Shown here: positions 24,623 to 28,794 of the stretch, in pieces
Position numbering within the stretch: the stretch's first letter is position 1
Layout of the letters: each line of letters begins with the position of its first letter
Virus record (IMG/VR): IMGVR_UViG_3300031251_000971
Span: 1-28,794 of that record
Length of the DNA: 28,794 nucleotides
Source: a virus
Direction: 5' to 3' (one strand)
Notes under the pieces: generated by a model
Database searches by the model: none
The model's input: the letters and a program-made list of their open reading frames with translations, nothing else
Told to the model about the DNA's origin: nothing
Made by a program: the position numbers and the translations under genes

Positions 24623-24870
24623 ACGCGCGAGTAGCGGCCGAGCCGGCTGCCGGCCTCGGCGGAGCGGCCATCGCTTGGCTGTCGCAGGGCGGCGTGACCT
24701 ACCGCGCGTGCGAGCTGTGCTTGCACGGGCGCGCCAGCGGCGAGGTCTTCCTCTGCAACAGCCCGGCCGCGCAGCTGGGCGGCGGGCCGGAGCGTGTCGC
24801 GGCCGCGCGCGCCGTCGACGGCTCGTGCGGGCCGAACGCGCGGCATCTCGAAATGCAGGCCTGGGCCTGA
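24619..24870 (+). CDS. Small Cys-containing phage protein
   Basis: This is an 83-residue protein starting at GTG in a GTGA overlap with the previous gene. It has four Cys in the order RACELC, FLCNSP and GSCGPNARH, with an AARAVDG segment between. This Cys spacing, a middle Cys followed by Pro and the closing CGPNA resemble a class of short zinc-binding proteins often seen in prophage early operons. Function unknown. It ends 28 bases before the kinase gene. Confidence 0.6.
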   Translation: MNARVAAEPAAGLGGAAIAWLSQGGVTYRACELCLHGRASGEVFLCNSPAAQLGGGPERVAAARAVDGSCGPNARHLEMQAWA

Positions 24871-24898
24871 TCCAACCGATTTTTCAGGGAGCAAAAAA

Positions 24899-25579
24899 AT
24901 GGACACCGTCGAAATCGAACGCCCGCGGCAAGCGGGCAAGTCAGCCGCACGCCGCGCGCTCATCATCGCCCTCACCGGCTATCCCGACGTCGGCAAGGAC
25001 ACCGTCGCCGGCATCCTGGCGCCGCGGCACGGCTTCCGCCGCATCGCCTTCGCGGACGCGCTGCGCGCCGAAGTCTGCGAGGCCTGGCGCATCGACGAGC
25101 GCATGCTCACGCATCGCCCGACGAAGGAGCTGCCGCTGCCGGCCCTGGCCGCCGGCATGTGCGGCGATGCCGCTTTCGCACGCTGGTGCGCCGACAGCGG
25201 AGAAAGCCTCACCGAGCCGCGCAGCCCGCGCTGGGTCATGCAGACCTGGGCCACCTTCCAGCGTCGATTCAGTCCCGCCTACTACGCCCGCCTGGTGGCG
25301 CGCTGGATCGATCGCCAGGTCGGCAGCGGATGGAACCGCATCGTCGTCTCCGACCTGCGCGACGAGGTCGAGGAAGAGATGCTGCGCGCCATGGGCGCGA
25401 AGGTGATCCGCGTGCATCGCCTCGATGCGCGCCGGCTCGACGGCGCCACCGCCGCGCACATCAGCGAGGAGCACGGCCGGATTCAGGCCGACGCGGACAT
25501 CGTCAACGACGGCAGCCTGGCGGCGCTGGCAGAGATCACGCTGGAGTGCGTGACGACGTTGGAAGGCAGCGCGGAATGA
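24899..25579 (+). CDS. Deoxynucleotide monophosphate kinase-like protein
   Basis: This is a 226-residue P-loop protein. Walker A is GYPDVGKDT (G27 to T35), followed by FRRIAFADALRAEVCEAWRI near residue 47, a PRWVMQTWATFQRRF segment near residue 108 and IVVSDLRDEVEEEM near residue 145. This matches T4 gp1-type dNMP kinases, which phosphorylate dNMPs (including hydroxymethyl-dCMP in T4) to feed phage DNA synthesis. The start is preceded by AGGGAGC. The stop overlaps the methyltransferase start (ATGA), so the two are probably made together. Whether it favours a modified nucleotide is not known. Confidence 0.82.
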   Translation: MDTVEIERPRQAGKSAARRALIIALTGYPDVGKDTVAGILAPRHGFRRIAFADALRAEVCEAWRIDERMLTHRPTKELPLPALAAGMCGDAAFARWCADSGESLTEPRSPRWVMQTWATFQRRFSPAYYARLVARWIDRQVGSGWNRIVVSDLRDEVEEEMLRAMGAKVIRVHRLDARRLDGATAAHISEEHGRIQADADIVNDGSLAALAEITLECVTTLEGSAE

Positions 25580-27480
25580 AGCCGATCGAGATCCGCCATT
25601 TCCATGCGTTCGTCGGCCTCGGCGGCGGCGCCAAGGGCTTCAACAAGTCGAACCCGCGCGTCGGCAACCTGCAAGCGAAGTTCCGCTGCATCGGCGGCAT
25701 CGACGTCGACCCGGCGGCGATCCGCGACTTCGAGCGCCTGGTCGGCGTGCGCGGCACCGTGCTCGACATGTTCGATCGCAGCCAGTACCAGGACTTCCAC
25801 GACCGCCAGCCGCCGCCCGCCGGATGGGTAGAAGCGACCACGGCCGACATCCACCGTGCGGCCGGCAATGAACGCCCGCACATCATCTTCCTCTCGGCTC
25901 CGTGCAAGGGCTTCAGTGGCCTGCTGCCCGAGGGCAAGAGCAAGACCGACAAGTATCAGGCACTCAACCGCCTGACGCTGCGCGGCGTGTGGCTGATGCT
26001 CGAAGCCTGGAAGGACGATCCGGTCGAGATGATCCTCTTCGAGAACGTGCCGCGTATCGCCACGCGCGGCCGCCACCTGCTCGACCAGATCACCAGCCTG
26101 CTGCGCAGCTACGGCTACGCCGTGGCCGAGACGACGCACGACTGCGGCGAGATCGGCGGCCTGGCGCAGAGCCGCAAGCGCTTCCTGCTGGTGGCGCGGC
26201 ACATCGAGAAGGTGCCGCCCTTCCTCTACGAACCAGAGAAGCGTCCGCTTCGCGCCGTCGGCGACGTCCTGGGCCGCATGCTGCTGCCGGGCGACCTGCG
26301 CGCCGGCCCGATGCACCGCATCCCGGCGCTGCAGTGGAAGACCTGGGTGCGGCTGGCATTCGTCGAGGCCGGCAGCGACTGGCGCAGCCTGGGCAGGCTG
26401 GCGATCGAGAACGGCCACCTGCGCGACTACCTGCTGGTGCCGGACATGCACAACGGCGCGCTGGGCGTGCGCGACTGGGCCGGGCCATCCGGCGTGGTTG
26501 CCGGCGCGAGCAGGCCGCACAACGGCTCGTACTCGATCGCGGACCCGAGGTTCGACCCTTCCGCGAAGTGGCGCGACGGGCAGGCCTACGGCGTTCGAAG
26601 CTGGGCCGCGCCCATGGGGACGATCGGCGGCCAGCAGAACCCCGGCCAGGGCGCGTTCACCGTCGCCGATCCGCGCGGGCCGCAGGATCGCAGACTGTTC
26701 TCGAAGTACGCCGTGTCGCACTGGGAATGCGGCACCGGCACAGTGATCGGAGGCGATGATTCGGGCGCGTACGCCATCGCCGACCCGCGCCACGCCGGCC
26801 CGCCGAAGCACTCGAACGAGTTCCGCATCGTGCCGTGGTCCGAGGCGAGCCGCGCGGTCACCAGCGCGCACGGCACCGGCCAGGCCGTGGCCGATCCGCG
26901 CCCGGTCGGCGAAGCCTTCGCGAAGTACGGAGTGACGCCATACGAACAGCCCAGCGGCACGGTCATCAGCGGAAGCACCAACGGCCAGGGCGCATTCGCC
27001 GTGGCCGATCCGAGATCCGGCATACAGCGCGGGAAGGGAGACCACTACCTGACGGCCGGCCACTACGGCGTGATGCCCTGGACGAAGCACGCATGCGCCG
27101 TCAGCGCTGCAGCGGCTCACGACAATGGTCGCTGGAGCGTCGCGGACCCGCGTATGCCCGACGCGGCGGACAAGCTGGTATGCCGCATCCGAGCGCTCGA
27201 CGGAACCTGGCACCGACCCTTCACGACACTCGAGCTGGCCGCGCTGCAGTCCCTGGTCGAGCCCGAGGAGCACCTCGAGCTGGACGGCCTCAGCGATCAG
27301 GCGTGGCGCGAGCGCATCGGCAACGCCGTCCCGAGCGATGCAGCCGAGCAGATCGGCAATGTCATCGGCACCACGCTGCTTCTGGCGTGGAGCGGCGAGA
27401 CCTTCATGCTGTCGTCGCAGCCGATCTGGGTGCGCGATGTGGCTGTGGCATTGAGCATTGCAGGAGGAGCGACCAAATGA
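25576..27480 (+). CDS. Cytosine-C5 DNA methyltransferase with six-repeat insert
   Basis: This is a 634-residue protein. The C5-methyltransferase motifs are present in order: motif I FVGLGGGAKGF (residues 12-22, AdoMet binding), motif IV APCKGFSG with catalytic C110, motif VI ENV (156-158), motif VIII QSRKR (198-202), and motif X RIGNAVP (580-586). Between motifs VIII and X, where the target-recognition domain lies, is an insert of about 380 residues instead of the usual 100-200. It carries six degenerate repeats, each ending ADPR (A322, A364, A402, A439, A477, A523). It transfers a methyl group to C5 of cytosine, probably protecting phage DNA from host restriction. There is no partner restriction enzyme nearby. 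It is coupled to the kinase upstream (ATGA) and overlaps the AlpA-like gene downstream (ATGA). Confidence 0.92.
   Translation: MKPIEIRHFHAFVGLGGGAKGFNKSNPRVGNLQAKFRCIGGIDVDPAAIRDFERLVGVRGTVLDMFDRSQYQDFHDRQPPPAGWVEATTADIHRAAGNERPHIIFLSAPCKGFSGLLPEGKSKTDKYQALNRLTLRGVWLMLEAWKDDPVEMILFENVPRIATRGRHLLDQITSLLRSYGYAVAETTHDCGEIGGLAQSRKRFLLVARHIEKVPPFLYEPEKRPLRAVGDVLGRMLLPGDLRAGPMHRIPALQWKTWVRLAFVEAGSDWRSLGRLAIENGHLRDYLLVPDMHNGALGVRDWAGPSGVVAGASRPHNGSYSIADPRFDPSAKWRDGQAYGVRSWAAPMGTIGGQQNPGQGAFTVADPRGPQDRRLFSKYAVSHWECGTGTVIGGDDSGAYAIADPRHAGPPKHSNEFRIVPWSEASRAVTSAHGTGQAVADPRPVGEAFAKYGVTPYEQPSGTVISGSTNGQGAFAVADPRSGIQRGKGDHYLTAGHYGVMPWTKHACAVSAAAAHDNGRWSVADPRMPDAADKLVCRIRALDGTWHRPFTTLELAALQSLVEPEEHLELDGLSDQAWRERIGNAVPSDAAEQIGNVIGTTLLLAWSGETFMLSSQPIWVRDVAVALSIAGGATK
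26461..27162 (+). repeat. Six degenerate protein-level repeats in the methyltransferase
   Basis: Each repeat runs roughly as hydrophobic-Val-x-x-Trp, a Ser/Gly-rich turn with GTV or similar, a variable Gly/Asn stretch, then an aliphatic residue and ADPR. Spacings between successive ADPR motifs are 42, 38, 37, 38 and 46 residues. The DNA is diverged, so the units are old or under selection for the protein pattern. They cover residues 296-529. Confidence 0.9.
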
Positions 27481-27689
27481 CAGCGCAGAAAATCCTCGTG
27501 ACCGACAAAGAGGCCGCCGCCATGCTCTCCATGGGCAGGTCGACCTTCTGGCGCCAGGTCGGCGCCGGCGTCCTGCCCGCGCCGGTAAGGATCGGCGGCC
27601 TCACGCGCTGGCGCGTGGCCGAGCTGCTTGCCTGTGTTGCTCCTCCAGCCAGTCCGACCACCACTGCATCAGCTCACGGCGCTGCTTGA
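27477..27689 (+). CDS. AlpA-like helix-turn-helix protein (possible excisionase)
   Basis: This is a 70-residue protein with KILVTDKEAAAMLSMGRSTF followed by WRQVGAGVLPAPVRIGGLTR and WRVAELL, the AlpA/MerR-like small DNA-binding fold used by phage excisionases and regulators. A strong AGGAGGAG site precedes the ATG, which overlaps the methyltransferase stop (ATGA). The last 30 codons overlap the end of the integrase gene on the other strand. It probably directs excision or regulates the integrase, as such proteins do next to P4-type integrases. Confidence 0.85.
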   Translation: MTAQKILVTDKEAAAMLSMGRSTFWRQVGAGVLPAPVRIGGLTRWRVAELLACVAPPASPTTTASAHGAA

Positions 27690-28794
27690 GGTACTGCGCG
27701 CGGTTGTAGGCCGCGCGCACCTCGTCACTCTCCTGGTGCTGCAGCTGCCGTTCGATCACATCCTTGTCGAACGGTGAATGCTCGTTGAGCACGGTCGACG
27801 CCAGCGCGCGGAACCCGTGCGCCGTCATCCGGCCCTTGTAGCCGAGGCGATAGAGCGCGAACAGGAACGTGTTTTCTGAGACCGAGTGACCTGGTCGCAG
27901 AGGCGAATCAAGCACCAGGTCGGTGTGCCCGGTGATCGGGTCCAGACCCGCGACGATTTCACGCGCCTGCCGCGACATCGGCACGATGTGCGGCAGCCTG
28001 GCCTCCTCCTCGCCCTTGACCCGGGCTGCCGGCACCACCCAGATGGCGCCCTCTTCCTTGAATTCGGAACGCCTCATGCCGCGCATCTCGCCCACACGCA
28101 CGAAGGTGTGCGCGAGCAGGCGAAGGCCCTGGCGCGTGACCGGCTCGTCGTAGCCGTCGATCGCGCGCAGCAGCTGGCCGGCCTCCTCGGGCGGGATGCT
28201 GGCCATCGGCTTCTTCACCTTGCGCACCTGCAGCACCCGGCTCAGATTGGCCGCTCCGTGGTGCTGGATGTACCCAAGATCCTGAGCGTGGGCGAAAACC
28301 GCCGCAATGCGGCCGGCCACGCGATGCGCCGTCTCGACCTTCCCGCCGGCCTGGGCAGCCCTGACCACCTCTACCAGCTTCGTGCGCGGGATCGAATCGA
28401 TCGGCAGCGAGCCAATGCTCGGGAAGGCATAGCGCTCAAGCGTGTTCTCGACCTGGCCCTGGTGCTTCGTGTTCGACAGGCTGGGCAGCTTCACCTGCAG
28501 CCATTCGGCGGCCGCCTGCTTGAAAGTCCGGACTTCGGCGACCGGCGGCGCGGCCGGAACGCCTCCAGGCACCCTGTCCCGGGCCTGCGCATGCGCCTTG
28601 CGCGCCTGGGCGAGGGACAGCGCCGGGTACATGCCGTAGGTGCGCGTTTTCTGCTTGCCGGCCACCATGTAGTTGGCGCGCCAGCTCTTTCCGCCAGCCG
28701 GCGTGATGAACAGGTACAGGCCCTGCCCATCGGTCAATTTGTATCCCTTGTCGCGCGGCTTGGCCGCGTCGACCTCCTTGATCGTCAGACCCAT
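27601..28794 (-). CDS. int: P4-type tyrosine integrase
   Basis: This is a 397-residue protein. Residues 1-90 form the DUF4102 arm-binding domain (AKPRDKGYKLTDGQGLYLFI), followed by a SAM-like core-binding domain near 90-180. The catalytic domain has R238 (VGEMRGM), K260, H326-x2-R329 (HGFR), H353 and the nucleophile Y363 (AAYNR). It cuts and joins att sites to insert or excise the element, often at a tRNA 3' end. The start codon is the last base of the window; MGLTIKEVDAAKP is the usual start for the family, so the gene is probably complete. It reads leftward from the element's right end, so the attachment site should lie just beyond 28794. Confidence 0.94.
   Translation of the reverse strand: MGLTIKEVDAAKPRDKGYKLTDGQGLYLFITPAGGKSWRANYMVAGKQKTRTYGMYPALSLAQARKAHAQARDRVPGGVPAAPPVAEVRTFKQAAAEWLQVKLPSLSNTKHQGQVENTLERYAFPSIGSLPIDSIPRTKLVEVVRAAQAGGKVETAHRVAGRIAAVFAHAQDLGYIQHHGAANLSRVLQVRKVKKPMASIPPEEAGQLLRAIDGYDEPVTRQGLRLLAHTFVRVGEMRGMRRSEFKEEGAIWVVPAARVKGEEEARLPHIVPMSRQAREIVAGLDPITGHTDLVLDSPLRPGHSVSENTFLFALYRLGYKGRMTAHGFRALASTVLNEHSPFDKDVIERQLQHQESDEVRAAYNRAQYLKQRRELMQWWSDWLEEQHRQAARPRASA

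What the first reader, a model, noticed from the sequence alone, without database searches (positions are those of the whole stretch)
25576..27480. Cytosine methyltransferase with six ADPR-ending repeats in the recognition region
The seen motifs place the repeats between motif VIII and motif X, the target-recognition region of C5 methyltransferases. Six units of about 37-46 residues, each hydrophobic-Val-x-x-Trp ... ADPR, are unusual. They could be several DNA-recognition modules giving multiple or long target sites, or a DNA/RNA or protein-binding solenoid unrelated to specificity. Multi-specific phage methyltransferases are known, but their recognition modules are not, to my knowledge, built like this.
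Basis: partly seen in the sequence, partly recalled or inferred. Interest (0 to 1): 0.75.

Follow-up and report, generated by a model that had tools for sequence, protein, structure and literature searches.

The report
Phage methylase with swappable DNA-recognition cassettes
A bacterial virus carries a DNA-methylating enzyme whose target-reading region is a row of six different, interchangeable ~40-residue cassettes that related viruses and plasmids swap, add and drop, which probably lets one enzyme mark several DNA sequences and so hide from several bacterial restriction systems.

Summary
The gene at 25576-27480 (634 aa) is a cytosine-C5 DNA methyltransferase with six units (36-46 aa), each ending in ADPR, between motif VIII and motif IX. 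The units are not a new fold unrelated to specificity. Each carries, in register, the published 'TL motif' of C5-methyltransferase target-recognition domains, and M.HaeIII is the best PDB match to the last unit plus motifs IX-X (weak, E=0.022). In 294 relatives from phages, prophages and bacterial genomes there are 3-10 units, drawn from 76 unit families (38 of them with at least 3 members). Their order and number change even between enzymes with >98% identical cores. An enzyme almost never carries the same middle unit twice (1 of 167; about 30 expected). Variation between families is concentrated in two loops flanking the TL motif, the positions that contact DNA in M.HhaI and M.HaeIII. Best reading: a multispecific orphan methyltransferase with exchangeable recognition cassettes, working like the SPbeta-group Bacillus phage enzymes but far from them in sequence, with more and cleaner modules, widespread on proteobacterial phages and plasmids. 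No target sequence could be assigned, structure prediction failed on the array, nothing is bench-tested. New variant of a known kind.

The parts
25576..27480 (+). cytosine-C5 DNA methyltransferase, 634 aa
   Evidence: PF00145 E=3.3e-11, phrog_32684 1.5e-113 and phrog_116 'DNA methyltransferase' 1.6e-49; AF2 core of relative L291 matches C5-MTases in the PDB
25894..25920 (+). motif IV with catalytic Pro-Cys (SAPCKGFSG, residues 107-115)
   Evidence: invariant P109 C110 in the alignment of relatives
26041..26049 (+). motif VI ENV (residues 156-158)
   Evidence: E156 N157 V158 invariant in relatives
26167..26196 (+). motif VIII QSRKRFLLVA (residues 198-207)
26443..26550 (+). unit 1 (family M09), TL-equivalent VV at residue 307 (26494)
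26551..26676 (+). unit 2 (family M05), TL motif TI at residue 349 (26620)
26677..26790 (+). unit 3 (family M14), TL motif TV at residue 389 (26740)
26791..26901 (+). unit 4 (family M06), TL-equivalent AV at residue 427 (26854)
26902..27015 (+). unit 5 (family M03), TL motif TV at residue 462 (26959)
27016..27153 (+). unit 6 (family M01, the fixed last unit in 286 of 294 relatives), TL-equivalent AV at residue 508 (27097)
27214..27255 (+). motif IX (RPFTTLELAALQSL, residues 547-560)
   Evidence: C-terminal PF00145 match
27319..27333 (+). motif X GNAVP (residues 582-586)
24794..25579 (+). deoxynucleoside monophosphate kinase gene, stop overlapping the methyltransferase start (ATGA)
   Evidence: phrog_139 2.5e-37, PF21448 1.1e-14, sequence
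27477..27689 (+). small HTH_17 (AlpA/excisionase-like) ORF, start overlapping the methyltransferase stop
   Evidence: PF12728 1.7e-06, sequence
27601..28794 (-). tyrosine integrase
   Evidence: phrog_1 9e-53

Best explanation
A temperate-phage orphan cytosine-C5 methyltransferase with one catalytic core and six tandem, exchangeable target-recognition cassettes. Each cassette is one TRD hairpin: recognition loop I, a hinge (V-x-x-W), the TL dipeptide, recognition loop II, and a (V/I)-ADPR closing strand. The cassettes take turns presenting DNA to the single active site, each selecting its own short target, so one enzyme methylates several sequences and protects the element from several restriction systems. 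Recombination between phages and plasmids adds, drops and swaps cassettes. Shown here: the array, its position, the TL motif per unit, the two variable loops, swapping and non-redundancy. Inferred: that each cassette has its own target, that one is used at a time, and that the benefit is anti-restriction.
For: Units sit exactly where PF00145 has its TRD. The published TL consensus (PMC2413257) scores 4.08 of 9 at one fixed column against at most 1.97 at neighbouring offsets, and that column is the best position in 94% of 1,050 distinct units; M.HaeIII scores 5 and M.HhaI 4. M.HaeIII is the best PDB hit to the last unit plus motifs IX-X, in register from residue 227. Between-family variation is concentrated in columns 0-13 and 25-35, while V14, V24, G33 and V-ADPR are near-constant, W17 is mostly aromatic and the linker drifts. 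Loop I and loop II co-vary (AMI 0.69 versus 0.33 and 0.34 with the linker). 167 dereplicated enzymes carry 138 distinct arrays of 3-10 units. Middle-unit duplicates: 1 of 167 versus 30+-4 in slot-preserving shuffles, and 0 of 41 versus 8.7+-2.3 with one representative per backbone cluster below 75% identity. Similar but distinct families also avoid each other (8 versus 23.9+-3.7). Cores of 98-99% identity carry different units; type pairs occur in both orders (25 of 260). Also on 170 plasmid records. Precedent: Bacillus temperate phages array multiple TRDs in one polypeptide to protect against many RM systems (PMC12707154).
Against: No methylation data and no target assigned: an association test between unit types and site depletion found mainly a GANTC signal that looks like host clade. 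AlphaFold2 leaves the array unresolved (pLDDT mostly 23-40 in the window protein, below 50 in a 3-unit relative), so alternate use of one TRD site is not shown. Profile-profile comparison with a small HhaI-centred alignment found no homology, and a unit-only profile hit only NF-kB p50 by chance. The TL Thr is Ala or Val in three of the six window units. The last unit is nearly invariant and may be structural rather than selective.
Confidence: 0.75

Rival explanations
1. Only one unit (most likely the invariant last one, next to motif IX) reads DNA; the others are scaffold, spacer or remnants of former TRDs.
For: The last unit is the same family in 286 of 294 enzymes; Thr of the TL dipeptide is replaced in three of the window's units.
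Against: Middle units keep family-specific loops under strong conservation (within-family entropy about 0.4-0.7 bits at most loop II columns) and are kept non-redundant; decaying spacers would drift.
Confidence: 0.12
2. The units act together as a solenoid or composite reader giving one long target or extra DNA affinity, or relaxed, near-nonspecific methylation.
For: Tandem regular repeats; nonspecific phage methyltransferases exist (M.EcoGII, cited in PMC12707154).
Against: Units are interchangeable in number (3-10) and partly in order (25 of 260 type pairs in both orders), which a composite reader would not tolerate; each unit carries a complete TL motif.
Confidence: 0.08
3. Non-redundancy reflects instability of like repeats (deletion by homologous recombination) rather than selection for different targets.
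For: Direct repeats are prone to recombinational loss (general knowledge); units are only about 110-140 bp.
Against: Families that are only similar at protein level (M03/M11, M04/M12, M04/M05) also avoid co-occurrence (8 versus 23.9+-3.7), while dissimilar families co-occur more than expected (460 versus 373). It explains absence of duplicates but not the TL motifs or the loop pattern. Host clade could contribute to the avoidance.
Confidence: 0.05

Closest known systems
Multispecific C5-methyltransferases of SPbeta-group Bacillus phages (M.SPRI, M.phi3TI, M.SPbetaI/mtbP, M.H2I)
   Same: One C5 core with several TRDs in tandem between motif VIII and motif IX, each around a TL motif; temperate-phage encoded. 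mtbP has TL sites RVYSPEGLSPTLTT and RRFKENGEPAFTVNT, and its relatives differ in TRD content.
   Different: No significant sequence relation was found between the arrays; here units are regular, end in (V/I)-ADPR, number 3-10, and come from at least 38 recurrent families shared across proteobacterial phages and plasmids, with Firmicutes plasmids carrying distant relatives. Targets unknown.
M.HaeIII / M.HhaI (single-TRD C5-methyltransferases)
   Same: V-x-x-W...T-V spacing of the unit equals R227-V-R-Q-W-N-E-P-A-F-T237-V238 of M.HaeIII; catalytic core fold.
   Different: One TRD versus six; the N-TL/C-TL trimers of the window units (GAL/SRP, QAY/QNP, SKY/DDS, NEF/HGT, AKY/STN, GHY/AAH) match none of the published GGCC, CCGG, GCGC or CGCG trimers named in PMC2413257.
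PHROG 116 / phrog_32684 phage DNA methyltransferases
   Same: The window protein matches both; phages phiCTX, H66, LKA5, PBC5 and PS3 carry relatives.
   Different: The annotation says only 'DNA methyltransferase' or nothing; the cassette architecture is not described.

Membership tests
Cytosine-C5 DNA methyltransferase (PF00145) | Motifs I, IV (PC), VI (ENV), VIII (QxRxR), IX and X in order | tested here: met
   Conserved in 29-31 aligned sequences; PF00145 E=3.3e-11, above cut-off
Cytosine-C5 DNA methyltransferase (PF00145) | C5-MTase core fold | tested here: met
   AF2 model of relative L291, core pLDDT mostly above 90; PDB matches include MET1, DNMT1, M.HaeIII and M.HhaI
Cytosine-C5 DNA methyltransferase (PF00145) | m5C activity on DNA | not testable with these tools
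   needs expression and methylome mapping
Multispecific C5-methyltransferase | Several TRDs in tandem between motifs VIII and IX, each with a TL motif | tested here: met
   Six units, TL motif at the fixed column; M.HaeIII alignment of the last unit (E=0.022, suggestive)
Multispecific C5-methyltransferase | Each TRD gives its own target sequence independently | not testable with these tools
   Indirect support only: non-redundancy and swapping
SPbeta-group multispecific enzymes (as a sequence lineage) | Close sequence relationship to M.SPRI / M.SPbetaI | tested here: not met
   tblastn of the window protein at E<=1e-5 listed no Bacillus phage among 36 phage records; works alike, not the same lineage
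Restriction-modification system | Cognate endonuclease gene adjacent | tested here: inconclusive
   Neighbours are dNMP kinase, HTH_17 and integrase; not every ORF of the window was searched and the record is a fragment

The most novel reading that the evidence does not exclude
Proteobacterial phages and plasmids share a common pool of several dozen TRD cassettes. Recombination assembles from it non-redundant arrays of 3-10 in one orphan C5-methyltransferase, giving the largest multispecific methyltransferases known, with the cassette set tracking the restriction systems of local hosts.
Probability: 0.5. Interest if true: 0.75.

Novelty: new variant of a known kind. Interest (0 to 1): 0.62.

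Why it matters
If each cassette reads its own site, natural enzyme pairs that differ by one cassette would give the cassette's target by subtraction, and a TRD code for C5-methyltransferases could be read from dozens of natural families. It would also explain how phages and conjugative plasmids pass many type II restriction barriers with one gene, and would supply ready-made modules for building methyltransferases of chosen specificity.

Tried and rejected
AF2 of the window protein (29 rows: pLDDT 50, array mostly 23-40) and of a 3-unit relative with 92 rows (core mostly >90, array <50): no fold statement possible for the units. hhalign of units against an HhaI-centred alignment: nothing, the canonical set being too small and diverse. 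Unit-only profile against PDB: NF-kB p50 at E about 0.06, a chance match to a short 'VRMDRTAGCVTG' stretch. Site depletion versus unit type in flanking phage DNA (2,304 tests): top hits are GANTC, which I read as the alphaproteobacterial CcrM host signal; a few further hits passed Bonferroni (GGCC with M15, CGCG with M06) but the test ignores host relatedness, so no target is assigned. N-TL/C-TL trimer code of PMC2413257: no match to published trimers. PHROG, Pfam and NCBIfam gave no model covering the repeat. Related-loci scan with the Bacillus velezensis relative found nothing in viral contigs. DNA-level transfer of single units between divergent backbones: only 73 pairs with >=95% unit identity at <=82% backbone identity, the listed ones all within the related H66-like group, so distant single-unit transfer is inferred from protein families rather than from recent DNA identity. 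All ten paper searches: no description of this family's array was found in the held library.

Full report
What is there. The ORF at 25576-27480 encodes a 634-aa protein that matches PF00145 (E=3.3e-11) and phage methyltransferase PHROGs. Motifs IV (PC), VI (ENV), VIII (QSRKR), IX and X (GNAVP) are conserved in relatives. Between motif VIII and motif IX are six units of 36-46 aa, each ending in ADPR. Their mutual similarity exceeds shuffled sequence (z 2.3-14.9, 13 of 15 pairs z>4).

Surroundings. The window is an IMG/VR virus record with P2-like tail genes, a gene-A-like nicking protein and a tyrosine integrase. The methyltransferase overlaps a dNMP kinase gene upstream and an HTH_17 ORF downstream by ATGA junctions, next to the integrase. 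No endonuclease was recognised among the ORFs searched, so I treat it as a probable orphan enzyme.

Relatives. I collected 306 loci from IMG/VR, GTDB genomes and phage records; 294 could be parsed. A further 170 plasmid records carry matches, 67 of them predicted conjugative, including Bacillus and Paenibacillus plasmids. Arrays have 3-10 units. Clustering on the two variable loops gives 76 unit families, 38 of them with three or more distinct members. The window reads M09-M05-M14-M06-M03-M01. The last unit is M01 in 286 of 294 enzymes; the first slot mostly uses its own set of families.

What a unit is. Column statistics over 1,050 distinct units show a near-constant scaffold (V14, V24, G33, V-ADPR, with a mostly aromatic position 17), a freely drifting linker (columns 15-22), and two blocks conserved within families but different between them: columns 0-13 and 25-35. 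The two blocks co-vary (AMI 0.69) far more than either does with the linker (0.33, 0.34), so a unit behaves as a cassette of two loops. The published consensus around the TL dipeptide of C5-methyltransferase TRDs, (YFW)X(RK)X5P(STCA)PT(ILV)(TASV)X5-16H(PFYWL), with T237-V238 in M.HaeIII and T250-L251 in M.HhaI flanked by the DNA-contacting loops (PMC2413257), falls at one fixed column: mean score 4.08 against at most 1.97 at other offsets, best position in 94% of units, compared with 5 for M.HaeIII and 4 for M.HhaI. A profile of the last unit plus motifs IX-X finds M.HaeIII as its best PDB match, aligned from residue 227 (E=0.022, suggestive). The M.HhaI sequence used was checked against PDB entry 10mh. 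I conclude that each unit is one TRD hairpin.

How the arrays behave. 167 dereplicated enzymes have 138 distinct arrays; pairs with at least 95% identical cores share on average only 0.43 of their middle units (Jaccard); 25 of 260 unit pairs occur in both orders. Among 62 enzymes with cores below 80% identity all arrays differ. Natural near-isogenic pairs differ by loss of one unit (L187/L242) or exchange of the first (L220/L240). A middle family is repeated in one enzyme of 167, against 48+-5 for random draws and 30+-4 for slot-preserving shuffles; with one representative per backbone cluster below 75% identity the numbers are 0 of 41 against 8.7+-2.3. Families with similar loops also avoid each other (8 against 23.9+-3.7), which argues that function, not only repeat instability, keeps sets non-redundant; host clade could contribute.

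Mechanism. The simplest account is a multispecific methyltransferase: one catalytic core, several alternative TRDs, each sending its own target to the active site. This is the arrangement known from Bacillus temperate phages, which protect against many RM systems by arraying multiple TRDs in a single polypeptide (PMC12707154; PMC8936443). SPbeta mtbP shows the same TL-centred units. Independent targets per unit, one-at-a-time use and an anti-restriction benefit are inferences; presence on phages and plasmids fits them.

Limits. AlphaFold2 predicts the core well in a 3-unit relative (fold matches C5-MTases) but not the units. No target can be named: known trimer codes do not match (PMC2413257) and the site-depletion test mostly recovered a host-like GANTC signal. 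The units' link to canonical TRDs rests on motif register and one weak profile hit, not on strong homology; hhalign against a small canonical set found nothing. How many of the six units are active is open; the invariant last unit may be structural.

Verdict. Real, and best read as a large, recombining family of multispecific phage and plasmid C5-methyltransferases. The principle is known; the regular cassette format, the array sizes, the shared repertoire and the spread appear undescribed in the papers I could search. New variant of a known kind.

Noticed in passing
24794-25579: A deoxynucleoside monophosphate kinase gene overlaps the methyltransferase start (ATGA), suggesting translational coupling of nucleotide metabolism and DNA modification.
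   Followed up: partly
27477-27689: A small HTH_17 (AlpA/excisionase-like) ORF starts inside the methyltransferase stop codon and ends inside the 3' end of the convergent integrase gene; phiCTX attP records (H35/H36) begin with a relative of the methyltransferase 3' end, so the gene may often sit at the attachment-site end of the prophage.
   Followed up: partly
L342 (Pseudomonas aeruginosa plasmid p34Pae36): The plasmid-borne relative lies near a Lar-family restriction alleviation gene and an N-6 DNA methylase, an apparent anti-restriction cluster.
   Followed up: no
L310-L315 (IMG/VR relatives of SPbeta mtbP): SPbeta-type methyltransferases also differ in TRD content between contigs: different TL-containing segments within nearly identical flanks.
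   Followed up: no
flanks of loci carrying M11/M15 units: GANTC sites are depleted in these flanks (p down to 2e-9), most likely because those phages infect alphaproteobacteria with CcrM methylation.
   Followed up: no
L339-L341: Bacillus and Paenibacillus plasmids carry 35-43% identical relatives with 3-4 units mostly ending in (A/S/N)DPR, so the family crosses phyla.
   Followed up: partly
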